DNA of 64,000 nucleotides from Sialis fuliginosa (lineage: Eukaryota > Arthropoda > Insecta > Megaloptera > Sialidae): the NCBI GenBank assembly GCA_961205875.1, contig OY540819.1:4838501-4902500 (forward strand), read 5' to 3'. The translations under genes and the position numbers were made by a program. Position 1 is the first letter of the stretch. Each line of letters opens with the position of its first letter. Under the pieces are notes generated by a model. The model searched no databases. It was given only the letters and a program-made list of their open reading frames with translations, and was not told the DNA's origin. This document shows positions 1,815 to 58,373 of this stretch, piece after piece.

Positions 1815-1829
1815 TATTGATAAATATCT

Positions 1830-2003
1830 TTCTTCTGTAGGCTTTCGTGACCGTTGTCCATAGTAGCTAACTTTTCGGGCTGTTGTCCACGTTGTCGTAT
1901 TTTTCTTCAGAAGTGATTCTGAAGAAGACTCCGACATGAGAGTCGAAACGTCAAGTGTAAGAAAAATACGACAACGTGGACAACAGCCCGAAAAGTTAGC
2001 TAC
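1830..2003 (+). mobile_element. 174-bp hammerhead-bearing foldback insertion (Penelope-type?)
   Basis: A 15-bp direct repeat TATTGATAAATATCT lies at 1815-1829 and 2004-2018 and delimits an insertion of 174 bp. Inside are two perfectly complementary 47-base arms, 1861-1907 and 1959-2005; the last two bases overlap the right TSD. The arms enclose a 51-base loop that holds a hammerhead-like core (separate entry). There is no reading frame of note. A TSD of this length excludes most DNA transposons and points to target-primed retrotransposition. Hammerhead motifs in repeat ends are known from Penelope-like elements, so a very short non-autonomous relative is the best guess. The left 30 bp (1830-1860) lie outside the arms. 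Confidence 0.7.
1917..1954 (+). ncRNA. hammerhead ribozyme-like core 1
   Basis: CTGAAGA (1919-1925) matches the conserved CUGANGA. Stem II is GACTC (1927-1931) with GAGTC (1940-1944), followed by GAAAC (1945-1949) and GTC (1950-1952). ACGU at 1948-1951 is self-complementary, giving helix III only as a dimer, as in minimal hammerheads of Penelope-like elements. Stem I would be TT/AA next to the core, then an internal loop, then the 47-bp arms of the host insertion. Predicted cleavage is after C1952. The core match is seen in the sequence; catalytic activity is inferred. Confidence 0.6.
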
Positions 2004-2018
2004 TATTGATAAATATCT

Positions 2019-2861
2019 ATTTAAACAATTTAAAAAATTGTCAAGTGCGAGTCGAGTCTCGCGTTCTAGTGTCCCGTACCATATAATTTTTCAATTTCTT
2101 CGATTATTAAAAAAAATGTAAATAATAACTATAGGTATTTATCAGTTCGCCTATTAGAAAACAGATTAACCAAATATACAAGTACAATGAGTGCGGTATT
2201 TTCTCTTGATCTCGGTGTAGTTATACATATTCCCATTTCTTCGAAAGATAGCCCATGCACCCCCCCCCCCCACCCTTACAATAAACAACATAAACTTTAT
2301 ATTATTTAATATCCATTATGAACTATAACTATGCCAAATCTCAGCTTTCTTTCTTCTCTGTAGCAGGCACAGTATTGATTTCATAGGTGTTCTTTTTTCC
2401 GATTTCTGTACGGAACACTAAAAAAAACAATCACATAAATTTATTCTGAATTAAATTAATTATAAAATTCATTTATCTGCTTAGCTGATTTCTGTCAAAT
2501 ACACATATGTAGCTACATACATACACAAGCATGTACAGTATAAATCAACTATTTATTCAAAGTATGTGGCAAATTTGTGAGGCATTTTGACAGATACGTG
2601 TGTCGCATACTTCATTGTACGGTATATTTAAATTACATCAATATAATTTTCATTTCATACCGCAAATAATACAGCAACAGGCTTGTACATAATGCATGAG
2701 TTCATACTACATGCATTTATAATATGTATCTAATCATCCATGTATGCAATTCGTGTTTAATCAGTGGTGCATATTTGTTTCCTATCTATAAACTATATAT
2801 TATATTTATTGTGTTACATATATTACATTACATTGTATTTTTATTTTAAATGGTGTAACTA
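2019..2861. other. AT-rich intergenic DNA
   Basis: No gene or bounded element seen. A C homopolymer of about 13 bases is at 2259-2271. Confidence 0.6.
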
Positions 2862-3929
2862 CACTCAAGGAAAAAATTAAAGGACCACTTTTATTTTTCG
2901 AAAAAATTGCTCATTTTCAAAGTAATGCCGATAGGTCAAATATGATCCTATTTTACTTATCGGATATGAAAATTGAAGGAAATTTTATCATATTTTCGAA
3001 TTTAGGGGTATTTTTGTGTTATTAAACTTATTTTTGTGACCAAATTGCGGCTTAATAAAAAATAAAAAAATTGATTTTTTTTGCAATTTTGAAAGATACC
3101 CACGGGGATGTTAAATTTTTTTTCTAAAAATTCAAGGTAACCATTTTGTAGGAATTTTTTTCAGTTTTAAAACGCTCTTTCAAATTAGTTTTATAATTTT
3201 TTGGTGTCGCGATATTCGAGTTTGAATGAAAAAAGTACCAACAAGTTTTAAACGACCATAAAGGGCCTAATGTTGGTCGCACAGAAAAGAAAAAAAAAAT
3301 TAAAGCTTATATAATCACCTATTGTCTAGTAGCATTTAAAAAATGTCTAATTTTAACTTAACCCTTCAAATACGAAAAACAAAACAAGGTTCGAATTTAA
3401 ATAATCCTGTAAAAATAACCTTTTTTTAATCATAGATCTAATGTTTAAAATGTATCAAGAAATTAAGTTCTATCAAAGAATATGAAAATTAGACTTATTA
3501 CCTTCTATGTGAACAAAGGTTCCAGTAAAAATCTTTTAATTTGGTTGAGAAATTGCATTTTGAATTTTTTGTATACGTTTAGGACTTGACCGTACATTTT
3601 ATAACAAGTTTTTCTTTGGGATTTTTTTTTTCAAAAAACAATCAATTTTTGAGAAAAATTGTAAGAGGGAAAAAGTTTTTCTTTCTTATTAAAGAATATT
3701 CTTAATTTTTTTCAGATGTTTTATATCAATATTGTGGGATCAAGTTTATTTTTAATAGGGTACTATAATAACACAAAAATAGCCCTAAATTCGAAAAGAT
3801 GATAAAATTTCCTTCAATTTCCATTTCCTATAAGTAAAAAAAGGATCATATTTGACCTATCGGCATTACTTTGAAAATGAGCAATTTTTTCAAAAAATAA
3901 AAGTGGTCCTTTAATTTTTTCCGTGAGTG
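2862..3929. mobile_element. Tc1/mariner-type non-autonomous element, 1068 bp
   Basis: TA dinucleotides at 2860-2861 and 3930-3931 flank an element with long inverted ends. The left arm is 2862-3024 and the right arm 3767-3929, with only scattered mismatches. The ends read CACTCAAGGAAAAAATTAAA and, on the other strand, CACTCACGGAAAAAATTAAA. The 740-bp centre is AT-rich with no transposase frame. TA duplication plus inverted ends fits the Tc1/mariner superfamily; the family is not identified. Confidence 0.75.
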
Positions 3930-5021
3930 TATATAAGCTCCGTCCTGGGAAAAGATAAACGATGATGTTTTCCTTAATATTTTCGAATTTGTTGCCAGCA
4001 AAAATGACCTTTAGGAGGTAGACGAATTATGATACCGATGGTATTATATAGCAAAAACAAAATAAATATTAAGAAAAATAAGTTATTTAGAATATGTTTC
4101 ATTTTCAGCATATGTTGCATAAATCTAGGCCCATGTATAGAAAATTAAAGTATCTTTTATTAAAAGTAGTTAACTAAATGCACTAAATTTAAGACCACGG
4201 ATTAACGACCACCAGATTCTTAAAAAGTTGTAAAAGACAATCAAAATTCTTATACAAATAGATATGTCCACGTAAAATTCTATAGAAATGTTCATTACCA
4301 TTTCTAAATCTACAAAATCATTAACATTCTTACATAGATTTTTTTAGACAGTGCTGAATGTTTTATTACCACTATTTAATTATTTAAATAATAAAATTAC
4401 TCAAGCATGCCTATTACACGAAAATTTAATTTCTATAAATATAATCCAATGTAGAGCAGAACATTATTCTAATAACATAATTACTTCATTTTGCAACGAC
4501 CGTATGTGGTGTTTTACAATATTAATAACTGGGTTAGAGTTTTCATAAAATCATTATTATTTTAACAACAGAGCAGTTAGACTATTAGGCTGTGTAATTA
4601 ACTAACTTGTAACTACATCTAATTTATAGCTAGAGACATCACAAATGTTCATATATATGAATGAGATGTTAATCCGCAACCCCTATTTTGGCAACATCTC
4701 ACTTTGCTATTAATTTCATCTGGGTTGTAAAATGTTTAAGGTAACCTTATATGGGTATTTAATTTTTCTTTTAAAGTAAATGATGATGATAAAGTTAATG
4801 TATAAACATATACTACATACATTTTAGAATTACAAAAGTTTTTATAATAACAGCCTTTAGTTGTAACTTGTAATACATAAAATAAATATAAATTTCAGAG
4901 AAAACTTTCTGGTTAAAAAAGACACTCTTTTAAACATAATATAAAAAATATTATTATTAAACTTGCGATACAACATAATATAGTCGATCTTTACAGGTTG
5001 GGATATTTAAAGTGTTACAGA
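3930..5021. other. AT-rich intergenic DNA, nothing recognised
   Basis: The open frames here are short, low-complexity and lack any family resemblance. Confidence 0.6.
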
Positions 5022-12682: not shown

Positions 12683-14802
12683 CAATTTATATTAAAATTA
12701 AATAGTATTATATTATACTATAATATAGTCAGTCATGAGTAAATAAAATTATCATAGATATTTTCTAATTAAATGTATACTCTAATATATTTTTTTAATG
12801 ATACAACTAAGTATTAAACGTGTTGTAAAATTTGCTATATTGTATAAACAATAATAAAAACATTAAAATGATTCAAGACAAATAAAAACCACAAAAAATT
12901 CAATAAAAACCAGCATTTATGTTATCATAACATGTTTACGCTATTTTTTTAATAAATATCGTATTTATTTCCGCTTTAGTTTAAGATTGGTATTGGTCGA
13001 TTATTCGCATCACTTCTAGAAAAACCAATATGGAGTGGGAGTTCACTGATCTTCCTCCAGATCGTTCTTCTCTTGTCTCTTTTGCAGTCTTTTATCGACT
13101 TAATAAATATTTATACAAGATAAATTATACCAGATGTTGACGAAATACTTCGGAAATAATTTGTATTGTATAACTCGATGTTAGTCACTATTTTTATACT
13201 TTTTAGTTTCTATTAATAAGTTTTTTTGTGTTGATTTTTTTTTTCGTTTTTTATTCTTATAAACTTTTTTAGTTGCGCATACAGGTTGTCCAAGATAAGC
13301 GTAAAATGCATGAAGATTTCCTAAACGGTAAGAGATACAGATTCGGTTAATTAATTGATATTAAAACATGTATAATATAATAATAATTTTTGTAGTTACT
13401 GAGGAAGTCTAAAATGACGAAACGTTTAAATAAATAATGTTATAACACGTATAACTGTTTTAATGACCTAAAACCTCGAAGAAAACAAAACAAAATAAAA
13501 TCTAAAATGGTCATTTTCTTAAATTCTAAATATAATATAATATTGTGATTTTTGAAAGCTCGTTCAATATTTATTTATCAAATAATAATAATGTTATAAG
13601 ATCATTAACCTGGTGTAATTTAAAAACAATTTTTATCAATATTACGTACTTTAATATTGATATGTACAGTCGCCTGCAGAACTCGTCTGGCACCCTAAAT
13701 GCTAGAATCGTTTACAACAGATTCCAAATTTAAAGACAAACATCATCGGTTATGTTTTTCTATCAAGTTTAATATATTAAAATACTAAAATTCGGAATAT
13801 CAAATATTTATTGCCACAAAATTTACTTATACAATTTTCAACAGATTACATAATAATTTAATTGCACAAATATATATGAGTACCTATTATAAACGAAGAG
13901 TAGTTCTTTATCTAGCAAATGAATTGCTAAATATCTGTCTTTGTTTGATACATGGAGAAATGATTTAAATACTATAATAATCAAATGGGAGGAGCCTACT
14001 AAGTTTGTGATAAACGAAAATGAATACAAACTGCAAGACCATTAATGCAGGTGACTGTACCTACGAGTATAATATTTTATATATAAATTATTAAGATTTT
14101 TTAAATATTTTTCATTGGATTAAATATTGATTAAATAATGTGTATTTAGGTACTATTAATTATATTTTTAGAAAATTCAATAAAGCTTTTCAGACATCAA
14201 AACATAATTTCAAAGAAGAATATTATGTTGACATCCTAAATTATTTATCATTGAATAAATACGCATGTGCATGAATGAAAAATGTCTTTATAACGTATAA
14301 TCCATTAAATTAAAAATATTAGATTAATTATAATTTTCTGTGTGTATGTTTTTTTATATATACATAAAATTACGTTGATATTAATTAATTTTTCTTATCT
14401 GATTTTTAATTAAGAAAAAAAATCTTTGCATTAATTAAATTTTAACATAATCTACTTCTCACAATTTGATAAGACTTGCTAAAACTTTTTAAGTATTAAT
14501 GAAATACATAACGCTTGTGGAATTTTCGTAATATTTTTGTAATTACAGAAGAACTTATATATGTTATAATATGGATACTTATAAATAAATTACGTATAGA
14601 GATCTTTCGAAATTTAGATATGTGTGGCGATTCTATTTAACAGCGAAATTACTGTGTACCAATTCATAGACAATATGTAAGTGGACTTACACTATCGTCA
14701 TTTGAATATTTGTTTGTTAGAAGTCCACAAAACTAATTTTGTGGTAATTGAATTATGAAAACATGTACATCAATTATAAAGCTTAACATTAATTTAAGTT
14801 GC
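12683..14802. other. AT-rich intergenic DNA
   Basis: A single mariner-like end, TACAGGTTGTCCAAGATAAG, is at about 13281 without a visible partner. A hammerhead-like core at 13396 is listed separately. Nothing else is recognised. Confidence 0.5.
13396..13429 (+). ncRNA. hammerhead ribozyme-like core 2
   Basis: CTGAGGA (13399-13405) fits CUGANGA. Stem II is GTC (13407-13409) with GAC (13416-13418), then GAAAC and GTT to 13426, again giving self-complementary ACGU followed by H (here U). TTA before and TAA after the core give a 3-bp inner stem I. A taaataaata phrase follows, similar to the one after core 4. Likely a decayed Penelope-type repeat end. Confidence 0.5.
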
Positions 14803-16539: not shown

Positions 16540-17674
16540 TATAATAAATTATATGTATTATACTTTAAGTCATTAATTATCGTGTTATTTCTATTTTAAA
16601 GATTTTGTTAACTTATTTCATTTATAATTTTTTTTCAATTTTGTAATGTTCTTTAAAAATATACAATTTTTGGGTAATATGAATTTATAAGTACAAAAGC
16701 CAATTAATAGTAAGTATTATAACATTAAATTGAATTAATTTCACCTTGAATAAATACAAAGTATTCACAGAATTCTGCACCTGTTGCAAGGCATTAAACT
16801 GTTTAATTAAGTCATAAAAAACCTTCCTGTGTCACATCACATTCATTTCAGCTCCTCAGATTCAACATTGTAATTTGTTTAGAACGTTATTATATTATAC
16901 AACATTTGCGAGTAAAAGCGAACTACGTGCATGTGTTAAAGAAAATTTAATCATACACATAAGAATAATCCTGAATTTAATTAATTTTAAAACACAATTC
17001 AAAATTGATTATTGACTTCTGGATGAAACTCACGACGTTCTGGTAATCGATTTGATCAATGTTTCTTCACATATTGCAGTCGACATTTTATAATATTTTA
17101 TTAGTATTTCAAAAATATATTAATCTAGCTGTAGAATTTTGTATTGGTACATATAATATTTACAATTAAACTAGTTGTAAGAAATTCTCACTAATAAAAA
17201 ATAATGTACCAAAAATATATAAAAATCTCTTGTTAATAAATTAAAATTTATAATTCATTTTTATGAGTAAACATTTTTCTTCGCACAGAAAAGGGAAAAT
17301 AAATTATTTCCTTCATTTTCAAGGAAATGAATTATTATTTATTGTGTTTTCCTACTTTATTCTTTTAAATTTCCGTCCAGTCATTATGAAATTATTAGAC
17401 ACTCTGTTTTATACAATTTACTTTTTAATTCAAAATCAATAAAATATACAATAAATTTTAAAAGCTCGATTATATTTAAAATGGTATCCATTTGTTTCTG
17501 ATTTAGATTTAAATTTCTATCCGTCGCCTTAAGTGCAATGAAACTATTTTTATTGCTTTTACGATGAACTTATCAAATATAGGTATTACGAATATCAATT
17601 TATATTATATATTTGATTTGACAATAGTAGTTGACATGACTTTTTTTTAGAAAATATAAAAATAACACGATTTG
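16540..17674. other. AT-rich intergenic DNA, nothing recognised
   Basis: No frame, repeat ends or RNA structure found. Confidence 0.6.
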
Positions 17675-18117
17675 TTGCTTCCTCGCAATATCGAACATAC
17701 GAGAAGCTTTGTTCACCGATTTCAAAATTTTAAATTGATTTTTCCGTTTCAGGTCAAAACAAGCACTTTTCGTTCTATGTCTGTCTATGTGTCTGTCCCC
17801 TGAACTCTTGAACCACTGAACCGATATTAATGAAACTTCGTTGGTTGATTGGGTCTGACTTTTGGATTTAGATTGAAATTGTCAAAAAATTAAAAATAGA
17901 CGAAACAATAATCAGGTGCGTCTTAAGAAAAATTTCGAAATATTATTTTTCAGTAAAATTGCATAAAAATTAAATGGTTAACCAATGCCAGGCAATGAAC
18001 ATTAAATCGAATTTTATTTAAATTGTTCAATAATTTATTTAAATTATTCAATAATTAACTACCTTTGGTGAATTTAGCACGAGAAAGCACTGTGCATTTA
18101 CTTGGCAGATGTTTTTT
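17675..18117 (+). repeat. dispersed family R1 copy 1 (TTGCTTCCTCGCAATATCGA type)
   Basis: The copy starts TTGCTTCCTCGCAATATCGA and ends GGCAGATGTTTTTT. It shares the order of motifs (GAGAAGC, tttcaaaattttaaattgat, TCTG tract, gaaccgatatta, gcactgtgcattt) with copies at 53602-54402 (+) and 56799-57342 (-). It lacks about 300 bp present in the centre of the second copy. No coding frame; superfamily unknown. Confidence 0.7.
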
Positions 18118-19573
18118 CTATACCTTTTTTGAGTGAATATAAATAGCTTGCTCTCACGATGAATTAAAATTGGATATAATTTTGGTTTCTAATTTTAATA
18201 ATATAGTTCAATTTATTAATAGTTCATTGCGTTTTCTGTATACCAAGTGTATCACCTAATTCTGACAACTTATTTACTATTAAAAACCAATCCAAAATCA
18301 ACATAAAAAAGTATAGTATAAAAGAATATTAGAACAGTATTTAAATTTCGTTATTTAAAAAAAAAAATCTAGATTAGCGATCGATCGATAGATCGTGATC
18401 GACGTTCTTGAGAACCCTGATGCATACTGTCCATAAAGGTAAATAATGATTTATAAAAAGAGTGAGAGAGAGAATGCATAATCCTATTATAAAGTTTATC
18501 TTATCCGATTTGCTTAACTGTTTGGTACGTTAAGTAAAACACTTAAAAATAATATTATCAATTATAATTTTGAACAACAAAAATCATCTCGAATGTGATA
18601 AAATTTGCTGTAGGTATATTTACACACTCAGTGCTGTTTTTATAACTTATATTTGTCTTGAGTGAGTAGAAGTTATATTCATTCTCTCTGAATTTATTCA
18701 TTTTACGACCGTACTTTTCATAATTACTTTTTAAGAATGGGTTGCTCTTTTTGTATTTTTTCTGTTTGTGGAGTATAAAAATGTTTCTTTACAAAATATT
18801 TGGTCTTTTTTACTAAATTTTATACTGTGCTTTATTTTTTATGGAATTTGTATTTTATTGTTTTATTAAACAACCGCAAATATTTTATCTACTAGTTCTA
18901 TATTATAATTACATTTTATCGATTATGTACTTATAAATAATGTGAAAAATAAAAGCTTGTAAATCAAAAAAAAAAAGTTTTTATAAGTAAACTTAAAGGA
19001 AGTTAAATGATATAAACAATAATGTTTTCTGATTATTAACTGCAGACCTTAATCTACATTTATTTTTGTGTTAAACAATATATTTTTTTAAAGAATATCC
19101 ATATATTCAATGTTAAATAGTTGCACTTATAAAAAAAATAAAAGCAAAACTATTATAAGTATATTCCGATAGACGTCATGTAGATAAATGAAATTAAAAA
19201 TAGAGCAACATGTAGTTTAAAATCGAGTGCGAACCCATTGTAAATGGTCGTATACGAAATTATTAAATCATCCATATATATTATCAAGCTCAACGTCTCT
19301 CTATCCGTTTGTGCGCTTGTAACTCGAAAACCACTTATCCGATTTACGTTTTTTTTTATTCATAAATATGTTCTCTGGCCAGGTTTAAGTAAATATTTTG
19401 TTACATTAGGTAACATAAGGAATAAGCAGTGATGATATTAGTAAATCAAGTCGGAAAAAATCATAAAGACCCCCACTCCAGGGTATTTTTTCCACTGAAT
19501 CTAATGAAACTAATTACAACCCTATATACGTGACAGGGGGTGAAATATTAACTCCCGCTAGTCTTATATACGG
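18118..19573. other. AT-rich intergenic DNA, nothing recognised
   Basis: A run of GATC-rich sequence at 18378-18402 (gatcgatcgatagatcgtgatc) is the only local oddity. Confidence 0.6.
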
Positions 19574-19575
19574 TA

Positions 19576-20110
19576 CAGGCCAAAAGTTTGAATACACCTA
19601 AAGAAAAAACAATTTTTTGAGTTTATTTGATTATTTCACGAAATCAACTTACTTTATTCACATAAGTTTATTGTGTTTAACATATGTATATATATTATAG
19701 AAATCAAATCAATTTTGAACATCGAAGAAATGAAAATGTTACTTTAACCGATTTTCTTAAAAATACCCACTTTTTTATTAATGATTTCGGCGCAAATTTT
19801 TGGTATTATTTGAAAAGTGATGGTGGCTTAGTGATGGTTTGGGGCTGCTTCAGACGCATGGGACAATATACAACCACAAATATTACAAAAACTAGTTGAA
19901 ATAATTAAAGCAAAAGGTGGTCATTTTCAAGAAAATCAGTTGAAGTAACATTTCCATATCTTCGATGTTCAAAATTGATTTGATTTCTATAAAATACATT
20001 AATAATAATGAAAAAACGTCTAAACTATGTTATGTAAGTCGAATTCGTGAAATAATCAAATAAACTCAAAAAATTGTTTTTTCTTTAGGTGTATTCAAAC
20101 TTTTGGCCTG
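19576..20110 (+). mobile_element. Tc1-like snapback element, 535 bp
   Basis: TA at 19574-19575 and 20111-20112 flanks perfect 67-bp inverted ends (19576-19642 and 20044-20110) that start CAGGCCAAAAGTTTG, a typical Tc1 terminus. Weaker complementarity continues to about 19790 and back to about 19896, leaving a centre near 100 bp. That centre encodes GGLVMVWGCF (19822-19850), a Tc1 transposase hallmark. The right arm encodes the transposase C-terminus, VEIIKAKGGH..., ending at a stop. The left arm is therefore an inverted copy of the right transposase end, not the original left end. No functional transposase remains. Confidence 0.85.
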
Positions 20111-20112
20111 TA

Positions 20113-22563
20113 CTCTATGTAGTTATTAATTACTAAATTAAAACTATAGTTAATAATAATTATAACAAGCGTCTCGTTAATAAGATTTACTATCTTAATA
20201 CATAGACATTAAGTATTTGCTATAATTGAGTTAGCAACACACATGTATCAATGTTGCCGTAATATTTTTTATCACCACAGACCTCAATCAGTATTTTACG
20301 GCTTTTCTCACAAACTAGATATATAAAATGGACATAAAAATAGCATTCTATTGCCTGTATCAAGCAAGCATCTACTATATTGTTCTTCGATTAATAATTA
20401 TTTATGACGTGTTATCGTTATGGCTAGAATGCAATCATATTTTAATATATCTAATGTTTATTTTATAAATAGGATCGGATATTGTCTAACGATAGCAAAA
20501 TGTACTGTGTTAAATTGTAAATACACAAGCTATTGTATAGAAAAATAACTGTTATAAATAACGATGACTTTATTTATGTAATGGTGATTGTTATAAAAAA
20601 AAATCATTAAATTAAATTAAATTAAATAAAAAGTTCATCACTTGCACTTTTTAAGACTTCAAAATATGTCTACTGCATTGTTTGGCCAAATGTTTGGTAA
20701 CATAATGGCCTAATATAACCTATATGAAGATATTATTTTCACTTTTAATTACTATAGATTTGATACCATTTTTAATGTTTCGGTGTGCAAAAACAAACCT
20801 ACGCAAGGAGAATTTATAAAATATTAAATTATTATAAAAATGTATTATGTCAGAATCGGTATCCAGATGAATAATACAATAATTAAACAAACTACTCGTA
20901 TAATAATAATTTATAACTTGCATTAAAATAGATTCAGAATATTTAAAACACAGCACAGTTCTGTATACAACTGTACAATGCTGTACCACAGAGAAAATTT
21001 TACTAAATTTACTCTACACCGTGTATTACAGAGTGAAATTTTTGCTTTAGAATGAACCTTCGCTTGTAGTCGAAGTATTTAAAACTTGGGCTTGGTTTTA
21101 CTCCGCAACAAACGTGTTTTGTATTATTTTGCATAAATAAACGAGAGTTTGTAAAGTAGTTTTCATAAAATTGTCATAAAATAGTTTTGTAACAATAAGG
21201 AAAAGTATTTATCAGTTTAGTTCAATTAATACTGAATATCGAAACGTACAGGATTATTAGTTTAAAGTAAACCATTTGTTCGAAATTCTAGATCACTCTT
21301 ATTATCAATAGATAAGTTTGAGAGTTTACTAAGAAAAAATTTAAAAATGTTTGTTTTTTTTTGTTACTGAATTATTTATGTTACTTAATATACGTCTGGG
21401 CTAATATGAAATTAATTTGATTAAAGTATTAAATAATATCAAGGTTTCTATATATTTTTTATTTTACAATTTTAAATGATACTTAATATACGTCGGAACT
21501 AATATTTTATATTATTAATTATATTAAATATCAAATGTTCCAATATTGTTTATGTGATTTTGTTATTTTAACAATAAAGGCCCTAAAACTTCCATAATAC
21601 GAATCTGGACTTTTAAAATTATGAAATAATATCTATCTGCCTTTTTGTTTTTTATTTGATACATTTCCTAATATTATTTGGCATTGTATAGAGTGCGTAG
21701 ATATTCTATATAATTCTTAGGCAAAGTATATAATAAATTTATTTTAAATAAATATTTCATAAATGCCTGAAATTGTATAGAATTCCCAGGAAAAATACAG
21801 AGTGCCTGTATTACATACTTTGCCGGTAACATGTCTATAAAATTAATTTTCTTGAGTGACTACTTTCAAATGTGTGTATTTGAATAACAAAAATATATAA
21901 AAAAAACTATATAGGTATGTAGTATATTTTTTTTATATCTTTAAAAAAAATCTAAATTAAAATACTTTCTACAAAGGCAGTATTTCACATTGATGTATAA
22001 CTTCAAATTCTCCGCACGACGTCAACATTATTTGATTATAAAATTCCCAAAATCCATCAAGAAATTTAGAGTCCATTCCACGGCTAAATACGGTTAGAGC
22101 TATTTAATTCAAATAGGTTGAAATTTTATTTAGTCTGAAAGTAAATAAATAAATAAATGATCCCATTAACTCCCCGTTCAATTTGCGAACTTTGTTGTGG
22201 CATTATCACCACCCCCTCCCCCCATGTATTGTATACAGCGGCGACTATTGCATTAACCCATTTCTGGCCTTTGGCTGCTGAACCTTAATCCCAGTTTATG
22301 ATCAGCATAAAACCTTTACATAAAAACGTAACATTACTGTAGAGTAATTCACTTATCGGTTCTGGTCGTTGCGACACGTACCTTTGTTATATTCCTCTAT
22401 CGCCGTAGAAATTCCATTTGATTCCAGATTCCGTGTTCTGCGACCTGAAACACACAAAAGCATGAGTTATTGTTAACTGGCATTTGCATCAACTACTACT
22501 ATTCGGCCTCGTTTCAAATTGCACTGATAACAGACATAGTGGCACAACTTTCGGCCCGTTTTT
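20113..22563. other. AT-rich intergenic DNA; GC-richer from about 22190
   Basis: From 22190 to 22560 the base composition becomes more mixed, with no TIR or clear exon. It could be a conserved non-coding element. The remainder is featureless. Confidence 0.45.
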
Positions 22564-26436: not shown

Positions 26437-27192
26437 TATACGATAAAACATTGTTTCCAAAAATGAAAAGCGTTATTTAAATTACTAGTCACAAAAGAGA
26501 TGTAAAAAATGAATACCTATAAAAATTCGTTTATATACATATGTAGATATCTATTAATATATTTTATATATGTAAATATTAAAAATTTTACCTCAAGAAT
26601 AAATTTAAATTTGTTATTTTAATTATACTTTCATGTCAAAATAAGCGTCTAATATAACATATTTTCATGAACAGAGAAAAATAAGTTACAAATTTATGTT
26701 GAGCAGATTAATATATTTTAGCCTGGAGTTAATAATTTGTAAAATTTAAAACAAACAATTAACATATTTCAAATCATATACGTATGCATGTAGATATGCG
26801 TAGTCTTTTGTTCATATTGTAAACAAAAGTTTAAAAGTGTTTACATTAAAAACAAAAGGCTATTAGCAAAAGAGATCAGTTCTCGTACGAACAATAAAAA
26901 GTATAATCTTCTGTTGATTACAAAGTTGTAAAAAATTTAAATATTTATGTTAACTTTAATCTACGTTGCGGTATTTTGTTAATGATAAGAAATGTTTGTT
27001 AAATTTTCCATATTAATTCAAATATATCTACATACTAAAAAAATTATTTCGTTAGGGTATACCTATAAGACATCAAAACAATTTGTTTAAGAAATTTTGT
27101 TAATATTTAATATAGGACATTAATTTTTAAATTCTTAATCGATTGATTGACCTCTTTTCAAAAGTTAAATAAGACCGCATACTTAATAAGTC
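26437..27192. other. AT-rich intergenic DNA, nothing recognised
   Basis: No frame or repeat ends found. Confidence 0.6.
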
Positions 27193-27195
27193 TAA

Positions 27196-28019
27196 CAAGA
27201 GGAAGCAACAGCACGGTTAATGAGAATTTCAATGAGCTTGTGGTATGTCAAACTAGAGCAAAAATAAAAAGACACGTGTCCAACAATTTGATCTCATAGG
27301 CCTTAATTACAAAGATAATTAACTTTGAAAATTTGTGTATTCAATATAACCGTGTATTATGTTCGCTCGAAATATAAGTGTGTTGGCCCTACGGTCAACG
27401 CGCTGGCGTCTCGCCTGGTTTTAAGATTTTGATTTTAATTTTTATTTACAATTATTTTTTATTTTTTGTACACATTACCTCTCCCACTTGCGTAAAAATC
27501 GATAAATTAGACATAAATAAAACATATATTATTATTGACAATAGATGTTTGTGGTTTCTTTCAAGTTTGTTTTTTATTAAAACTTTTCAATTTATTAATT
27601 AAAAACTAATGAGTTGTATCAATAATAAATTAAATTTACTTTAAAACAAATTAATAATTATGTACTGGCGTATATATCAATATTTTCATTGTCAATAATA
27701 ATATATGTTTTATTTATGTCTAATTTATCGATTTTTACGCAAGTGGGAGAGGTAATGTGTACAAAAAAATAAAAAATAATTGTAAATAAAAATTAAAATC
27801 AAAATCTTAAAACCAGCGCGTTGACCGTAGGGCCAACACACTTATATTTCGAGCGAACATAATACACGGTTATATTGAATACACAAATTTTCAAAGTTAT
27901 CTTTGTAATTAAGGCCTATGAGATCAAATTGTTGGACACGTGTCTTTTTATTTTTGCTCTAGTTTGACATACCACAAGCTCATTGAAATTTTCATTAACC
28001 GTGCTGTTGCTTCCCCTTG
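27196..28019. mobile_element. 824-bp foldback element with nearly identical arms
   Basis: The left arm (27196-27542) and right arm (27688-28019) are complementary, with about two substitutions and three short indels over some 330 bp. The loop is 145 bp and AT-rich. The ends read CAAGAGGAAGCAACAGCAC and CAAGGGGAAGCAACAGCAC. TAA flanks both sides (27193-27195, 28020-28022), consistent with the 3-bp TWA duplication of PIF/Harbinger, though the family call rests on that alone. The near-identity of the arms implies recent insertion or ongoing gene conversion. No transposase. Confidence 0.75.
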
Positions 28020-28022
28020 TAA

Positions 28023-28903
28023 GTTACAAAATATTTTCATCGATTTTTAGTACTTTTTTCCTACCTACAAGTTTTATTTTAGTTGATTGTTATGTAGTGT
28101 TAGTAACATTGACTTTGGAATATACTAAAATATTAATAAAATAAACTTGTAACAAATTTTTCGAATAAATTATTTTCACAAACATTGAATCGTCTCTTGT
28201 TTTCGGATAAACAAATGCATTTGATTTCTTTCACTCAATATAACATGGATTTAAGTTGTTACATAAACATTGTCCCGAATCCAGAACACCCCACGGCCGA
28301 TAACGAGGGGTCTCTAACTTGGCGACAAAGCCCCGGGATACGAAAAGTTATGTGCGCTAAAGAAAACACAACTTAGATGGAAATCACGAACAACTAGATC
28401 TAATATTGGTTAAAGCTGTTAAATTCCCAATCTTGATGGTTAAATGTGACTCATATTTTATTTACATTTTAAAATAATGTAAATATAGATTTTAGCTTAT
28501 TAGTGGTGTAATAGGGGGAAGTCGGTTAATTTGGACCATTTTTTTAAATTAAAATTAATGTCAACAACAAAAAAAACGATAGTTCATCCTAAAATATTTG
28601 GTGATTATTGATTGGACCAATAGGAGTTGTCTGTCTATTGAATGGCAACCAACGTCTTAAATATAACATATTAAAACAGACAATAATATATGTATATGGA
28701 ACTTTACTCGTAGTCTATTATAATAGTTTCCATAAAATAGATATTAAAACTAATTTCTTAACTACATAATTATGTTTAAATCTACACTAAATTAATTAAA
28801 AATGTTTTAAAACAATTTTATTTTAAATTCATACAGAAGACTTTCTTGTTAATAGAGAGTTGAAGTAATATGGCCACAGCACAAAGTTTCCTCAATTCTT
28901 TAT
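28023..28903. other. intergenic DNA with a short GC-richer patch at 28265-28370
   Basis: The patch (ccccacggccgataacgagg and following) stands out from the AT-rich flanks but has no clear frame or repeat end. Confidence 0.4.
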
Positions 28904-39624: not shown

Positions 39625-40846
39625 TAATAATAATATTTAATAATAATAATTTATTCTGTGGGTATAAAAGAGTATACATAGAATAAGTCAAAATATATAT
39701 TAAAAAGTACAATCAATTAAAATAAACAAATATACATATATGAATTAAAAATATTCACTGATTTTATAGTGACATGAGTCCAACAAAAACGACTTAAACT
39801 TTATTTTGAAACTTTTTAAGGGAAGAGATTTTAAATCATTGGGTATTTTGTTGAAAACACGTATTATGGTATTGAATACCCCTTTGTTTATTACTGTTAG
39901 TTTTGATTGCATTAATGTAAATTCATTTTTGTGTCGGGTAAAATGACTGTGCCCTGGTAAATTACCACTAAACAGCTCACTGTACTTTTTCATAAAAATT
40001 GCACATTCAAAAATATATAAGTCTGCTAAAGTGAGGACCTTTAGCTTATTGAAAAGGGGTCTACATGGATCTCTTGAACTGGCACCGCACATCAATCTAA
40101 CACAACGTTTTTGTATCATAAAAAATTCAGTGTTATTAGACGCGTTGCCCCAAAAAATAATACCATACATTAAATTGGCTTGAATGTATGCATAATAAAT
40201 GTTTAACAGAACATTTAGAGGAACTGTTTTTTGCAAGGCCTTAATCATATAGCAATATTTAGCAATTTTTTTAACAAGTTTCTCTACATGATTGATCCAA
40301 TTTAGGGTGTAGTCTATGTTGATTCCAAGAAATTTGACACAATTTTGTGTTGGAATATTGGAAACAACATCCGGGAAGTTACCAAATTTACCAAATCTCA
40401 TTATCTGGGTTTTAGAGATATTTAATTTAAGCCCATTGTTGCAAAACCATTCTGTAATAAAAGCTAAAGAATATTCTATGTTTTTGAGCAGTACTGTAGG
40501 GTTTTCGTGATTATATATGATTGTTGTGTCATCTGCAAAGAGTATAATTTGTTCATTGTTCTTTATGACTTTTGGTAGGTCGTTAATGTAAAGTAAGAAT
40601 AGAATTGGACCCAAGATTGAACCTTGAGGAACACCGGTATTTATAATTTGATAATTAGAATTTATTGCCAAACATTGATTATTAATGTGGAAGTTTAACC
40701 TAACAAGTTGAGATCTATTAATCATATACGAGTCAAATAGTTTTAAAACAGTTTTTCTTATACCATATATTTGTAATTTATGCAATAACAATTCTTTATC
40801 GATGCTGTCGAAGGCTTTTGAGAGATCAAGAAAAACTGCTACTGAT
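39625..40846 (-). mobile_element. CR1-group LINE, 5'-truncated, reverse transcriptase 3' part
   Basis: The minus-strand frame 40791-39745, with in-frame extension up to about 40846, encodes the C-terminal part of a non-LTR reverse transcriptase. In order it has FLDLSKAFDSID (motif A), GVPQGSILGPILFLLYINDLP (motif B), LFADDTTII (motif C, catalytic DD), LNISKTQIMRFG and KFLGINID. After these come QKRCVRLMCG and a CRPLFNKLKVLTLADLYIFE tail typical of the CR1/Crack/Daphne group. The endonuclease and RT N-terminus are absent. The 3' UTR ends in an ATT-type microsatellite tail at 39625-39652. The frame is open throughout, so it is probably young. It contains no host coding. Confidence 0.9.
39745..40791 (-). 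CDS. LINE reverse transcriptase, C-terminal 348 aa
   Basis: Coding part of the LINE above. The listed start is only an internal methionine. Open sequence continues upstream (to about 40846) with VAVFLDLSKAFD, so the annotated length understates the fragment. Both catalytic aspartates of motif C (FADD) and the aspartate of motif A (LDLSKAFD) are present. It lacks the N-terminal third of the RT and the endonuclease, and therefore cannot act on its own. Confidence 0.85.
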   Translation of the reverse strand: MLLHKLQIYGIRKTVLKLFDSYMINRSQLVRLNFHINNQCLAINSNYQIINTGVPQGSILGPILFLLYINDLPKVIKNNEQIILFADDTTIIYNHENPTVLLKNIEYSLAFITEWFCNNGLKLNISKTQIMRFGKFGNFPDVVSNIPTQNCVKFLGINIDYTLNWINHVEKLVKKIAKYCYMIKALQKTVPLNVLLNIYYAYIQANLMYGIIFWGNASNNTEFFMIQKRCVRLMCGASSRDPCRPLFNKLKVLTLADLYIFECAIFMKKYSELFSGNLPGHSHFTRHKNEFTLMQSKLTVINKGVFNTIIRVFNKIPNDLKSLPLKSFKIKFKSFLLDSCHYKISEYF

Positions 40847-41081
40847 AGATATATAATTATATAAACTTACGTATGGAATCATCTTTTTTTTTGGGGGGGG
40901 GGGGGCTCAATTAATTTTAAATAAATATTTCTATCCCAAAAAAGGGCAATAAGAGCGATCACTAATATCTCAACAAGGACATTTTGTTCAATATTCAAAG
41001 AAATGCGTGTACTCACCGTATATGATTTATATATTCTAGAGTGTTCTTGTTTCATCAATAAATATAAAAACTTACCATATT
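40847..41081. other. spacer with a long G run
   Basis: A T-run followed by about 13 G residues at 40889-40904. No gene. Confidence 0.6.
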
Positions 41082-47410: not shown

Positions 47411-50274
47411 TACACTGAGAATGATGGCATTTTCAAGTTTACTGTTCGATTCTTGTGTCGTATTTGAATGAAATCCTAAATAGGTATTACCATTTATGTT
47501 ATAGGTTAAATTTATTACTTATTTATTTATTTATTTTAATTGTGTTTACCTTCATCACAGGCGTAAATAAGATAGGGTATATTTAAATAACATAACTCAT
47601 AGCAAACCTGTTACTTAAGAATGTAAATTTTTGTCTATACATATAAAAATACGAAATAAAATACAAATATAATAAAAAAAATTATTTTGTAAGATTACAG
47701 AGTGTTTAGTCTTACCTCAAATAAGGTGGTATTTTAGTATATAATTTTTTTTTAAACAATTAAGGAAGAATTTTTGACACAGAAACTTTAAAATATTTTA
47801 TTTTAGATATTTTTAACCTGCATTTTATTGACATAAAATTGTAATGATATTTACTAGTAAAAATATCAAAATTATTATATGCGTAAATACTTTCCATCTC
47901 AGAAAAAAATTCTTAGTTGAAATGAGTAGGTGAACCCTGAGCCGTAATTACCACAGAGGCAGCTGGAGTGATATTCTGGACCTCTTAGCATAGGGGGATT
48001 TCGAACAAACGTGGAGAGATAAAGGGGGCCCAGAACCTCTAGTTATAGTGAACCTAAAAAAAAGGTGGCCTCTTATAAACGACCTTTTAAATATATTTTT
48101 TTAATATTTTCCCCTGAATAATAGCTAAAAGTTTGTTAAAGAAATAAATAGTTACCTATATACTATAATAAATAGATATTGAACATTTATCGAGGTTAAT
48201 TATAAAAATGCATTCGCCTGTAAAATGATAAAAACAATTAAATCCAACATTACATAAAAAAATGTAATAAAAAATATTCGTTATTTAACTGTGCAACAAT
48301 CACTTTAATTAAAAATAAAAACTCCAATATCAATGCAACTCGAAATAAGCATTTTATTATTTAAAAATTGGAAACTGTTTGCATTGTATTTAATAACCAT
48401 TCTAAATTGCTGGGTTAATGACGAACACTCAACATAAAATTAAACGTACTGTCAAGCAAACATAAAAAGGGTCAACTGAAATTAATAGCAATTTTTATAA
48501 AAAAGGTAGAACATTATTTGAACATTCACTTCATTATGCTTTGAGTTTTTCAGGTTGTTTTTAGAAATGGTAGTTGGAGTAATATTGTTTTAACTAGATT
48601 TTAAAGATGGAATTATGAACGCTATTTGTCATGAATATTTTACAACGAAAATGTTTTATACTCTTTATAGCTAACAAAGTATGCAATCACTTTTTAACAA
48701 ATTAAACTTTTTTTGTGTTGACACAGATTTTAACGTTGCAAAATTTATTTAATCTTATTATTTTTAAGACATAATTTTATAAGTATATCAATTTTTTTTT
48801 TAAATTATAGTAGAACCTCATTATAATGTAGACTAACAATAGCAAGGGGTTATTCGATAAAGTCGAATATCCATTAGAAGGTACTGGCACCAGTTTTAAG
48901 AGCAAGGTATAATGATTTTTTTGGGATTGATGGACTTTTTTTTGTAATTCCTATGAACACAGTTTACTAATAAAACAACTACCTCTTTATTATTTTTTAT
49001 TTTTTTATTTTTAAATCATATTCTTTTATTTTGATTATGTTTTTTCTCCAGTAATGGATAAAAAACAATTGCTAATGATTACAAAATGATAAATATTACG
49101 ACACAAAAGTTATAAAATAAAGAATCGTAAAATTTGAAACAATGTAAAGTAGGTTCTATGATAATATAATAATTAATAAATAGATTACACTAATAATTAG
49201 TTTAAATGTCCACCATTTTGATACCTATTAGCCGATTGTCATCCAATTAAGCTGTTTTACAGTTAAGTATTTATAGATTATGATTCATTAATGGCAGTTA
49301 TCAGATATCAATAAATATTTCTAATTTAGTATGTTTAATTAAACAAGAATTAAACACTGGGCGCTATGATCCAAGACTGATGATATTGTAATTAAAATGA
49401 TGCCTCAATTTTTCAATTTCCTCCATATTATCGAAGTTCACTGTAATGTGCGATGAAATGTTAGTCAATATACTGATCTAATATTACAGAATCCAAGATT
49501 ACATTAAATAATATAAATAATTGTGAATGTTTCAGTTTGCAATGCTTTTATAAAAAAAATCCTACAAATTTAAATATAAATAAAATAACTTCTCTCTTTA
49601 TCTGGCTGAAATAGCGTCGTCATAACAATAAAAGAAAGTTCTTTTTAGAATTAACACAAACCAAAAATCCTGAAACAATAGGCGAAGGTCATGTAAATAA
49701 TGAAGACATTTAAAATAATTACAGCTGTTAAGTTTAGGTGAGGCCGCAGTAACTGGTTTATTATAAGAATAATTCTGTGCTCCGGCAACGCCTCCTGCTT
49801 ACGGGATTCAATAGCGATGGTAATGAAGACACGGCCTACTCTAAAATCTCGCGTGGCTTGTTTTAACATTTTCTTTTTTTTTACTCGATTTACGATTGTT
49901 GGAAATTAAGATATTTTTTTTGTCAAATTGTATTGTGAGGAATATCAATAAATTATATTTATTTTAAATAGACAATAATTACTTAAACGTTCAGAAGCTA
50001 AAGTGATTTCCGTTTGAAAAATTAAGAATCAATATTTCAGAAATAGATTTTAGTCCTGAACATTATACTGTTTATACAGTAGTCTTCAAACGCTGTCTTT
50101 TTTTTATATAAGAAATATTGTACTTAATTTTTTATTATTTGCTGGATTTGAATTTTCCTATAAGATTTTCGTTCAGATATTATCGATTATTTTTTTAATA
50201 ATTTCTTCCACATTTCTAATTTCTTGTCTATAGTTATTTTTTAATCTTGCTACGTGAAAATTTATATTATATAA
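47411..50274. other. AT-rich intergenic DNA with weak remnants
   Basis: TAGTAGAACCTCATTATAAT at about 48808 resembles a pogo/Tigger-type terminus (tagaacctc) but has no partner. A moderately GC-richer patch is at 49735-49865. Otherwise nothing. Confidence 0.4.
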
Positions 50275-50276
50275 TA

Positions 50277-50674
50277 CAGTGTATTCCAAGTTGATTAAGC
50301 TATAGGAAATTTAACATGAGGACAATTAGAAGTGTTGTAATAACCTTTGATCGAATTTAACGATGTGTGATTGGTGCATTTTGAAATACCGCCACAAAAT
50401 TTAGTAAAATTGTCATTAGTATTTTGTTTTCAAATTTATATCTGCCAAAAAATATTATTATAATTTTATCTATGATGCTAACTTTAATTTCATTTTGTAT
50501 TTTATTGTTGAAAACAAAATACTGTTGATTAATTTAAAATTTATTAGTTATATTCGAAGCGGCATTTCAAAATGCACCAATCACACTTCGTTAAATTTGA
50601 CCAAATGTTACTACAACATTTCTAATTGTCCCCATGTTAAATTTCCTATGGCTTAATCAACTTGGAATACACTG
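50277..50674. mobile_element. Tc1/mariner-type MITE, 398 bp
   Basis: TA at 50275-50276 and 50675-50676. The ends CAGTGTATTCCAAGTTGATT are identical on both strands for the first 20 bases, and the arms (about 50277-50392, 50563-50674) are complementary with few mismatches. No coding. Confidence 0.8.
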
Positions 50675-50676
50675 TA

Positions 50677-52133
50677 TACGTAAACAGTAAACCTAACATG
50701 TGGTTTAAATTTTTGGGTCTTAGAAATGCGTTTTAATTTTAATTTAATCCTAAAACTATTAAATTGTAGACACGAATAGTTTTCAAATTATTGATAAGGA
50801 CTATGTTTAATGACTGTCGCTCTAGCTTGTACTTTATTATTAATCAAGTACCTACTCTGCCAACAAAATTATCAAATCAAAATCAACTTCAGAATTATTA
50901 TTCACTTACATCTCCGATATTTTTAAAATTAAATCTTATATTATTCTATGTGTGGAGTTTAATTATTGTCTTTTAAATTTCCTTTTCGAACAACATAATA
51001 TTGAATATCATATTATATTTTTAGTTGGATTTTTTTTGTAAATAATGTTAAATAAACATTTCTCCGATATTTTTAAAATTAAATAAACAAAAAAAAACTG
51101 TTTAATATTAGATTCACCTGTTGTCGAGTACATTTCTTTGAAAATCTCCCATCTGTTCTGTACGCGCCAATATAAAGAGGCCTAGTGAAGTTATTTAATC
51201 AAGTATTTTCTTTTGAGTCAATGAAATTTTTGTAGCATCTCTCATACCATTACTGCCGCTGACTTTATGCAAACAATAAATAATTCATCTCTTAAAAATG
51301 AATTCCAGTTACTAAATTATTTTTACAAGAATTTAATATTTTATCATATAATTATTACATTCATTTTCTAACTATTTCATTTTTCGTTTATCCTATAATA
51401 TTTTTTATTCAAATTTTTTTAATTTATTTATTAGTCCCATTTTTTCTCGGCCCCAGCGCAAAAAAATCTATAAACTTATTGGAGCACCAAACGAACATAT
51501 GGTGTGAATATAACTTCAGTATATCCAGTGGTTTATATTTATATTTTTTTTATATTCATGTGTACATGTTTATTTAAAGTTATTTTTTTTAATTCTCAAT
51601 TGAAAGAAAATTTTTTACTTTCTTATACCACGTGCATGAAATATACATACATATATACCTACATATAGTATAAGTAAGTACCTATAGTGAAGTCGATTTT
51701 TTTCGAACTTCGGATTTTGACGAAATTATCTATTTTGACCTTCCCTGAATCCATTCTGACTATTTTCGCCATGATGTCTGTATGTCTGTCTGTCTGTCTG
51801 TCTGTCTGTGTCTGTCTGTCGGTCTGTAAGCGCTGTAACTCAAATACGACAAATCGTAGAAGGGTGAAATTTTATATTTAAGATTAATTTTTGTCTGGGA
51901 AGAAAACGTCCTATTTTTGAAAACGATCTTTCAACCGGATACGGATGTTTACCTTCGTCGATTTTTGAATTTTTCGAATTACTCTGAAACAGTACGAAAT
52001 AGAGAAAAACGGTCAAGTTAAAAAATGTAGGTAATATCTATATCTATAATTTATGTTGTATTCATTTTTTCGTAAAAACGAATTTTTTAAAAATAAATGT
52101 TTATTATAGTTCAAATGGTTCATAACAGAGGAG
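50677..52133. other. AT-rich DNA with a TCTG microsatellite
   Basis: The TCTG tract is 51776-51828, inside a diverged dispersed repeat that also appears at 41590-41690. No gene. Confidence 0.55.
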
Positions 52134-54402: not shown

Positions 54403-56798
54403 TAAAACGGATGATCTTTTGTTTTCAGAAAATCTTATTAAAAAAAGGTCACATAAGTAACCTTTCTAAGAAGATTGGTAAAGTCTATCAAAGAAATAAG
54501 GGAATACTAAAAAAAAGTAAAAATTTGGAATGTCCAGCATAAAGTATACCGTTAAATTTGGTACCCAGCCAAAACAATTAAGAAAAAATATTTACACATT
54601 AGTTAAGCCAGAAGAAAGAGACCGAGAAAAAATTTAGATGATACTCGAGCAGTTAGTAAAGACTAGTTAAAACGGATGATATATAGTACTAGGGGTACTT
54701 AGAGCGAAGTCGTGCGTTTGCCCTTTTTGCGTCGTAAAAAAGGCATATATACCGTATTAAGTATAACTGACTACTGTACTAACGATCCGCCCAAATGGGC
54801 ATGGTGTTTATACATCTATAAAGTACACATAAGCCGTCTAATGACACAACTTCTAGTTTAATAGAATATACAGCCGAGTATTTATCTACAGTAGTAAAAA
54901 GTTATGCGTTGTTCATTGATCTGAAGATGAATTATGTGTTTTATTTGTAACGTATGTCAAACGGTTTACTTTTATGTAAAACAATAAGGGATCGGGAATA
55001 TTTGTGTGACACGATATTTTGGTTTTATGTTTGCATAATATTTTTATCGATGTATATTTTATGTATAAATTATTATTCTTTTGTAAGTTTTAAGGTTTTT
55101 GTAGCTATCTAGAAGTGATTTTTAACATCTGGATTTAAATAGTCAACAGATTTTATCAAAAAATATATACGAACAAAAAAGTTTTTTAATTTTATTGTTA
55201 ATAAGTTAAGATGTCTCAATTTAATTAACGCATCCCAAAATACGAGTATCAGCTCACTAAAGCTGTAATAACTTTAGTTTTTAAGCTCGTGACTAGTGAT
55301 GTAAAGGTGAAAAGTTTCATAACTTTTCAATTTCACTGAAAGTGTGTGAAAATTTTCCTTGTATGCGTCTTGAGGCTTCCGCGGTGATCTTGATATGGAT
55401 CTTTGCTTCTGGGTGTAAGTCGCTTCAGTTTGGCCCTGAAGATGCAATGTGTGATGAAACGTCGGCTAAGATCCATACTATAAATTGTGTATTACATTAT
55501 ATTTTGACTCATATAATTAGAATTTGAACTTATCACTGACTTGAAACTTTTCATGATGTTTTAAAAAATATATATTTTCATGAAAGTGACGCTAAACACA
55601 CATTATTTTCTTACAAAAATAGGGTGCCCTTATTTAAAATTAAAAAAAAAAATTTATCGATACACCCAATTATTTATATCGTGGACCTACCATAAATTAA
55701 TAAAGAACTTTATCTGAATTATAAATAAAAGTTTAACATTTAAAAACAAAATCGCATTAAATTTCCTTAATAAAATTAAAAAAATACAGTGATATAATAT
55801 TTAAAAGAAACAGAACAAAGTATAAAATACTAATTTACATTTGAAACGACACACACGGGGTAAAATGAAAATATAACAAAAATCATAACCGCGGCATTAG
55901 AGTTTTATTCGTTGCGAGACAATGACTGGTTCACGGCACAATTAAATTATATCCAAATCCACGACAGTTGTCACGTGGGTGTCAGTGGAGTACAGCAGAG
56001 TTTAAAAGTTGCCGCATCCCGGTTCCTCAGAGACACTCCCACACATACTCAAATACCCACCCATACACACAGTAGCGTAGCAAATTGTCAATTAGTCCTA
56101 ATTCATTTTTTATTTCCATGTTCTGAAAGAAATGGAAGTACTGAAATACCGTCGAAAAAAGAGCAGATTCTGATTGCACTACCTTCAAAACTTAAAGAAA
56201 AGTTAATTTTCAGTTGGCGACTGTGCGTGTGTCTGTGTGTTTGTGTGTCTGGATGTAGAATTTTCTTTCGTTTACGATAAGTACTGCAAAAATACACCGA
56301 TCTGAATTATTTTTGGTGGAAATGTTTGTCTCAGTGAGTACTCTAAATCTATTGATTTTGGTGCTAATCGGATTAGAGGTTTTAGAAATATTTAAAATGT
56401 TATAACTTTTACTGTCTTAATAGTGAACGTAGTATTTTGACTTGGTACATTTGTAGTTCAATTTAACTTAAGAGACATTTATTTTTTGTACGTGCATAAA
56501 CAGCTATTAAAGGGATGAAAACCACCCTCAAAATTTTAATTTTAAATAATAATTAATACGTCACTAATTCATGTTGCCTTAAAACAAATGCAACTAAATT
56601 CAAATTGTCAAATTAGTTATTCTATGAATGTGTATTATTTCAAACAATATTTTTCATACCTAGTAAAATACTCATTCATACATCAACATTCAAGCAAAAT
56701 CCCTTAGACTTAGAAACGTGTTTTTTTAATGGGAGTCTTCTTTTTGTTACGTAAACACCCACTAAGAAGGGATTTTCCAAAATATAGTTTAACTTTAC
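54403..56798. other. AT-rich DNA, GC-richer near 55340-55470 and 55900-56060
   Basis: A hammerhead-like core near 55433 is listed separately. The 122-codon frame starting at 55912 has no recognisable domain and ends in a GTGT-rich tract; I do not call it a gene. Confidence 0.45.
55433..55466 (+). ncRNA. hammerhead ribozyme-like core 3
   Basis: CTGAAGA (55436-55442) and GAAACGTC (55456-55463) are present, with inner stem I GCC/GGC directly flanking them. Farther out there is a perfect 10-bp stem TATGGATCTT (55394-55403) with AAGATCCATA (55468-55477). Stem II is poor (GCA/TGT with one wobble and unpaired bases), so this copy is probably decayed. Still farther out, tgaaaagtttcat (55308) and tgaaacttttcat (55540) are inverted. 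Confidence 0.4.
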
Positions 56799-58360: not shown

Positions 58361-58373
58361 CTAATCTGCTCTA

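What the first reader, a model, noticed from the sequence alone, without database searches (positions are those of the whole stretch)
1815..2018. A 174-bp insertion that is almost entirely one hammerhead-shaped foldback
A 15-bp TSD brackets an insertion whose two perfect 47-base arms would form an extended stem I. Its loop contains every conserved element of a hammerhead core (CTGAAGA, GACTC/GAGTC, GAAAC, GTC). Penelope-like elements are known to carry minimal hammerheads in their repeat ends, but a separate mobile unit of this size made of one ribozyme fold with a perfect inverted repeat would be unusual. Perfect arms imply either recent birth or selection on the fold.
Basis: partly seen in the sequence, partly recalled or inferred. 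Interest (0 to 1): 0.85.

Follow-up and report, generated by a model that had tools for sequence, protein, structure and literature searches.

The report
Tiny head-to-head Penelope retrotransposon insertion
A 174-base jumping-gene remnant in an animal genome is most likely two mirror-image copies of the same end of a Penelope-type retrotransposon, carrying its hammerhead-ribozyme motif, and not a new kind of mobile ribozyme.

Summary
A 174-bp insert (1830-2003) lies between identical 15-bp target-site duplications (TSD), and a hammerhead core (1919-1952) sits between perfect inverted arms. The arms are 45 nt inside the insert, 48 if three bases shared with the duplication count, not 47.

The interpretation changes. 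The right half (+ strand) is the hammerhead, with an ATG in its loop II opening a frame (MRVETSSVRKIRQRGQQPEKLAT). The left half, read on the - strand, is the same sequence with no mismatch, lacking one 37-nt block between AAGAA repeats and carrying a 30-33-nt extension in the same frame (MDNGHESLQK). Published Penelope-like elements (PLEs) have this anatomy: head-to-head inverted pseudo-LTRs, a 30-40-bp 'tail', a junction palindrome, a hammerhead over the ORF start, short TSDs.

Best explanation: a very short PLE insertion made by reverse transcription from both cut target ends, starting at two internal RNA sites. Both arms copy one RNA recently, hence perfect pairing. A decayed locus at 55.37-55.48 kb looks similar.

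No host genome or PLE protein was available; family membership rests on anatomy, and two-ended priming is inferred.

The parts
1815..1829 (.). left target-site duplication TATTGATAAATATCT
   Evidence: 15/15 identical to 2004-2018
1830..1862 (-). 'tail': extension of the ORF start present only in the left, inverted unit (30 nt unmatched, 33 with the 3-nt TAT shared with the TSD); continues the frame as MDNGHESLQK on the - strand
   Evidence: translation of the reverse complement; length fits the 31-bp tail of PMC3846280 and the 30-40-bp tail of PMC11167929
1863..1907 (-). left arm = inverted copy of the PLE ORF start (RKIRQRGQQPEKLAT)
   Evidence: perfect complement of 1959-2003; frame
1903..1926 (.). 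palindrome at the head-to-head junction, TTCTTCAGAA-GTGA-TTCTGAAGAA (10-nt arms, 4-nt loop); AAGAA/TTCTT is also the probable joining microhomology
1919..1952 (+). hammerhead core: CTGAAGA, stem II GACTC/GAGTC, GAAAC-GTC; predicted cleavage between 1952 and 1953
   Evidence: expected by chance 0.01 in 64 kb
1936..2003 (+). start of the PLE reading frame, ATG inside hammerhead loop II, MRVETSSVRKIRQRGQQPEKLAT (the last codon takes its third base from the shared TAT)
   Evidence: translation; an ORF start overlapping the hammerhead is described for PAc in PMC11167929
1959..2003 (+). right arm
   Evidence: perfect complement of 1863-1907
2004..2018 (.). right target-site duplication; its first bases TAT also match the next ORF bases of the left unit
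55370..55477 (+). second, older-looking relative: inverted arm 55394-55406, hammerhead core 55436-55463 and right arm 55465-55477 (13 nt, 92%)
   Evidence: longest exact inverted match 10 nt, 2 of 1000 shuffles as long; no TSD found

Best explanation
The insert is an extremely 5'-truncated insertion of a Penelope-like retrotransposon. The PLE protein cut both strands of an AT-rich site 15 bp apart. Both cut ends primed reverse transcription of PLE RNA inside the start of its ORF, at two neighbouring start sites: about 68-71 nt into the ORF on the right, and about 30 nt further in on the left. The right cDNA ran back through the ORF start and the hammerhead. The left cDNA stopped at the ORF start just 3' of the hammerhead cleavage site, or skipped the hammerhead. 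The two cDNAs were joined head to head through a 5-nt AAGAA/TTCTT microhomology, and gap filling gave the 15-bp TSD. Shown here: TSD, exact inverted copies, single 37-nt gap, one-sided extension, open frame through the hammerhead, shared TAT at the right junction. Inferred: two-ended priming, microhomology joining, PLE identity. The insert itself is probably dead. Any transcript through it would be a long hairpin, with the hammerhead at best weakly active.
For: Left half = reverse complement of 1917-2006 without a mismatch, one 37-nt gap, plus a 30-nt extension beyond 2006. ATG at 1936 in loop II opens a frame through the right arm, and the left unit carries the same frame 10 codons further. 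PMC3846280 (passages and Discussion) describes inserts completed by an inverted pLTR and flanked by TSDs of 9, 10 and 8 bp (some copies without TSD), a 31-bp tail on one inverted pLTR, a pLTR holding the first 12 codons (22 with tail), head-to-head as the most frequent arrangement and palindromes at the junction. PMC11167929 (parts 1-2 of 4) shows for a purified anole PLE protein cleavage and extension of both target strands, AT-rich targets, reverse transcription from two internal sites in the ORF start with the tail between them, and a hammerhead overlapping the ORF start. No difference in 60 duplicated positions (45 arm, 15 TSD) bounds pairwise divergence at about 4.9% (95%; one search computed 4.8% with 61 positions), so recent copying explains perfect arms without selection. 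The second in-window locus shows the same order of parts.
Against: No PLE protein, full-length copy or other genomic copy could be compared; the scans of viral and prokaryote contigs gave no usable relative. The open frame is short and not significant alone: 21% of shuffles of the joined 98 nt stay open from ATG, and 55% of shuffles of the last 33 nt of the left unit. The likeness of the two tails is weak (310 of 5000 shuffles as good). Pfam finds nothing at E up to 1 in either short peptide. The target is AT-rich, but so is the window. The 2013 authors held self-priming on an antisense template the best reading of such junctions, and in their paper the word hammerhead does not occur.
Confidence: 0.75

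Rival explanations
1. Self-priming: the foldback was already made by a hairpin-primed copy (RNA or cDNA folding at TTCTTCAGAA-GTGA-TTCTGAAGAA and copying itself), and the finished hairpin was then inserted by PLE machinery.
For: The junction is a palindrome of 10-nt arms with a 4-nt loop, and the whole left half is complementary to the right apart from one gap. PMC3846280 argues for self-priming from such palindromes.
Against: A snapback copy of a molecule already joined to the target would run into target sequence, but the left half runs 30-33 nt further in the ORF frame. It also needs a separate 37-nt deletion that removes most of the ribozyme from one arm.
Confidence: 0.2
2. An independent small non-autonomous mobile unit (animal retrozyme-like, or a foldback/MITE) whose perfect stem is selected.
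For: Size lies within the 170-400 nt of animal retrozyme RNAs (PMC7229834), and it has a hammerhead and a TSD.
Against: Animal retrozymes are direct tandem repeats with canonical type I hammerheads; here there is one core in an inverted arrangement with two-pair stem I. The inverted repeats are not terminal, since 30 nt are unmatched on the left. In 64 kb BLAST shows no match to the insert longer than 25 nt apart from itself and its own inverted half.
Confidence: 0.07
3. Assembly or library artefact (palindromic chimera).
For: Perfect inverted arms are a known artefact signature (recalled).
Against: A 15-bp TSD brackets the whole insert, the hammerhead core is intact, and a one-sided tail is not expected of an artefact.
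Confidence: 0.02

Closest known systems
EN-containing Penelope-like elements of Adineta vaga (e.g. Pen2a_Av, Pen3a_Av), PMC3846280 (passages and Discussion read)
   Same: inverted head-to-head pLTRs inside one TSD, ~30-bp tail on one inverted pLTR, pLTR containing the first codons of the ORF, palindrome at the junction
   Different: in the passages I read, inverted-pLTR inserts keep ORF sequence or other DNA, with pLTRs of about 190-220 bp and TSDs of 8-10 bp; here only two short ends remain and the TSD is 15 bp. Solo pLTRs mentioned there lack TSDs. That paper does not mention hammerheads
Poseidon of Anolis carolinensis (PAc), PMC11167929 (parts 1-2 of 4 read)
   Same: hammerhead overlapping the ORF start, reverse transcription from two internal sites in the ORF start, AT-rich target, both strands cut and extended
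   Different: the commonest PAc start lies 111-118 nt into the ORF (about 68-101 nt here); [quoted passage not shown] the later steps of PAc insertion are not yet shown
Animal retrozymes, PMC7229834 (part 1 of 6 and passages read)
   Same: small size, type I-like hammerhead, TSD
   Different: direct tandem repeats with canonical hammerheads, most invertebrate ones self-cleaving efficiently; no inverted duplication described in what I read

Membership tests
Penelope-like element (PLE) | ORF with telomerase-like RT and (usually) GIY-YIG endonuclease | tested here: inconclusive
   the 174-bp insert is far too short to hold it; Pfam finds nothing in its two short peptides and no host genome is held
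Penelope-like element (PLE) | minimal type I hammerhead without real helix III in the pLTR, at the ORF start | tested here: met
   core 1919-1952 with GAAAC-GTC and no helix III; ATG 1936 in loop II; minimal PLE motif lacking helix III described in PMC6155905 (passages). By sequence motif only; stem I is weak
Penelope-like element (PLE) | inverted pLTR with optional 30-40-bp tail, within a TSD of variable length | tested here: met
Penelope-like element (PLE) | AT-rich target | tested here: inconclusive
   TSD TATTGATAAATATCT has 2 G/C of 15, but the window is itself 72% A+T, so the test is weak
Hammerhead ribozyme (type I) | conserved core with three helices or minimal variant | tested here: inconclusive
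   core and 5-bp stem II present, extra A1926, stem I two pairs then a mismatch (read); no Rfam hammerhead match
Hammerhead ribozyme (type I) | self-cleavage at C1952/A1953 | not testable with these tools
   needs an RNA assay
Animal retrozyme | direct tandem monomers with canonical type I hammerheads | tested here: not met
   one core, inverted halves, no direct repeat of the insert in the window
Foldback/MITE DNA transposon | inverted repeats at the very ends of the element | tested here: not met
   left end carries 30 nt with no partner on the right

The most novel reading that the evidence does not exclude
The hammerhead acts during insertion. The inverted cDNA is copied from RNA that the ribozyme has already cut, so it ends just 3' of the cleavage site, while the other cDNA is copied from uncut RNA. 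In both in-window loci the inverted copy begins within a few nucleotides 3' of the predicted cut: 6-11 nt in the first, 1-4 nt in the second. Such inserts would record ribozyme cleavage in vivo, a step that the 2024 in vitro work found dispensable and whose cut ends it did not see in RNA-seq reads.
Probability: 0.15. Interest if true: 0.6.

Novelty: new member of a known kind. Interest (0 to 1): 0.33.

Why it matters
It is a clean fossil of a step that is still unclear for PLEs: how the two cut target ends are filled and joined. With no body between the ends, both start sites, the tail, the joining microhomology and the TSD can be read in 204 bases. A genome-wide set of such minimal inserts would directly test two-ended priming against self-priming, and whether hammerhead cleavage sets one of the ends. 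By itself it adds no new kind of element.

Tried and rejected
Rfam at gathering score (0 matches) and at E up to 10 in 1750-2100 (5 matches, no hammerhead); MIR851 and MIR6445 there are generic hairpin matches far below cut-off. Window self-BLAST: apart from the insert itself and its own inverted half, no match longer than 25 nt. Approximate hammerhead scan (only rows with stem II of at least 3 pairs or an exact core were printed) gave 4 rows: the insert, 55436, 13399 (one mismatch, 3-bp stem II) and 30295 (two mismatches, - strand, 3-bp stem II). 13399 has no inverted arms beyond chance (1000 of 1000 shuffles as good). 30295 was not followed. Scans of viral contigs for the hammerhead, the arm end and the ORF start found nothing. 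A looser pattern found one contig, L001, where the motif lies antisense inside a 249-aa ORF. Genome contigs: strict pattern nothing. Two generic viral scans stopped at 120 rows each: of 361 motif occurrences in 360 loci those with stem II of 4 or more were listed. I recognised no PLE there, but did not look for PLE genes in these loci. A TSD for the second locus was sought and not found. Joint ORF openness was tested and is not significant. PMC12910113 (passages) gave nothing on pLTR anatomy beyond a mention. The window was not searched for a decayed PLE ORF beyond the ORF list and Pfam on 2 of its 17 ORFs.

Considered and rejected: independent ribozyme transposon, retrozyme, MITE, artefact (see rivals). 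A simple snapback of one cDNA joined to the target was rejected because of the one-sided extension.

Full report
What is there. Between 15-bp duplications (1815-1829, 2004-2018) lies a 174-bp insert with 43.7% GC in a 27.6% GC window. Its arms 1863-1907 and 1959-2003 pair perfectly over 45 nt (0 of 1000 shuffles). They reach 48 nt if TAT, which fits both the element and the duplication, is counted. The core CTGAAGA-A-GACTC-loop-GAGTC-GAAACGTC occupies 1919-1952. CTGANGA...GAAACGTC occurs twice in 64 kb where 0.01 is expected.

What it is made of. ATG 1936 lies inside loop II and opens a frame that runs through the right arm: MRVETSSVRKIRQRGQQPEKLAT. The left half, read on the - strand, gives RKIRQRGQQPEKLAT and then MDNGHESLQK. 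A global alignment shows the left half to be an exact copy of 1917-2006 with a single 37-nt gap, which falls between two AAGAA repeats and removes stem II, GAAAC and the cleavage site; 30 further nt have no partner on the right. So the 'stem' consists of two copies of one stretch of sequence placed head to head, one of them 30-33 nt longer at its outer end.

Why Penelope. Arkhipova et al. 2013 (PMC3846280; passages and Discussion read) describe Penelope inserts completed by an inverted pLTR, with a 31-bp tail on one inverted pLTR, first ORF codons inside the pLTR, TSDs of 8-10 bp (some copies without) and palindromes at head-to-head joints. Frangieh et al. 2024 (PMC11167929; parts 1 and 2 of 4 read) show that the anole PLE protein cuts and extends both target strands at AT-rich sites. 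It starts reverse transcription at two internal sites in the ORF start, the tail being the stretch between them, and its hammerhead overlaps the ORF start. A curation guide (PMC8969392, passages) lists inverted pLTRs and short 3' extensions as PLE peculiarities. The window insert shows these features in minimal form. The link between PLEs and hammerheads is credited to Cervera and De la Pena 2014, which is not held; I rely on PMC6155905 (passages), PMC7229834 (part 1 of 6 and passages) and PMC6431247 (passages).

How it likely arose. Each cut target end primed a cDNA at one of the two start sites. The right cDNA read back across the hammerhead to about position 1903-1913. The left cDNA read the tail and the ORF start and stopped, or jumped, at AAGAA 6-11 nt past the predicted cleavage site. 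The two were joined through AAGAA/TTCTT. Because both copies come from one RNA sequence, perfect arms are expected at birth. With no difference in 60 duplicated positions (45 arm, 15 TSD) the pairwise divergence is at most about 4.9% (95%; one search gave 4.8% with 61 positions), so no selection on the fold is needed. Two-ended priming and joining are inferred, not shown.

The ribozyme. Stem I next to the core is T1918-A1953 and T1917-A1954, then a mismatch (read), and the minimum-energy fold pairs 1917-1922, part of the core, with upstream bases. With the core held open and stem II formed the insert folds at -90.0 against -91.6 kcal/mol, but the bases around the cut then pair elsewhere; the unit 1908-2003 alone loses 4.6 kcal/mol (-16.0 to -11.4). 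Weak or protein-dependent activity is likely; PAc itself cleaved only when its protein was added.

A second case. At 55436-55463 an exact CTGAAGA...GAAACGTC is followed by GGCTAAGATCCATA. An inverted match, TATGGATCTTTGC at 55394-55406, lies upstream (13 nt at 92%; longest exact match 10 nt, 2 of 1000 shuffles as long). By inspection its stem I is good (TTTGGCC/GGCTAAG, two of seven pairs G-U), but stem II is decayed (1 pair). Its possible tail resembles the first only weakly (310 of 5000 shuffles), and I found no TSD. In both loci the inverted copy begins within a few bases 3' of the predicted cut. Two loci, both found through their hammerhead, are too few to build on. The inverted pLTR of Pen2a_Av (181 bp, 37 shorter than the full pLTR) may not fit, and PAc RNA reads showed no ends at the cut.

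Limits. No host genome is held. The reading frame is too short to be significant alone. Seven text searches listed no paper that describes such a minimal PLE insert as far as titles, abstract starts and the passages read show; three of them listed only 20 of their 22, 27 and 37 papers, and most subscription papers, among them the 2014 hammerhead paper and Craig et al. 2021, are not in that library.

Noticed in passing
window 2860-3931: About 1.07 kb with 166-column inverted ends at 94.6% identity (2860-3024 and 3931-3766), CACTC...GAGTG ends by inspection; looks like a non-autonomous TIR DNA transposon with a possible TA duplication.
   Followed up: no
window 27192-28023, 61577-62214, 19565-20121, 50274-50677: Long self-complementary stretches (86.5%, 82.0%, 76.5%, 77.0%), probably foldback-type or MITE-like elements.
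   Followed up: no
window 53599-54114 and 56840-57345, with partial copies at 17667-18120: Inverted pair at 86.7% with further partial matches elsewhere; contains TGTCTGTCTGTCCG-like repeats and GCTTCCTCGCAATATCGAA near its end. The second hammerhead locus (55.4 kb) lies between the pair.
   Followed up: partly
window 39745-40866 (-) and 58365-59126 (+): Non-LTR retrotransposon remnants: RVT_1 (E 2.4e-24) and RNase H (E 3e-10).
   Followed up: partly
window 13399-13426 (+): Hammerhead-like CTGAGGAAGTCTAAAATGACGAAACGTT with an ATG in the loop; 3-bp stem II, no inverted arms beyond chance.
   Followed up: partly
L332 4418 (+), L346 2498 (-), L352 37 (-); start positions on the strand scanned: Loci from the viral-contig scan with CTGANGA, 6-pair stem II (GGCTGG...CCAGCC or GGCTCG...CGAGCC), GAAACGTC and CTTCGGGG or CTCCGGGG after it; may be phage hammerheads.
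   Followed up: no
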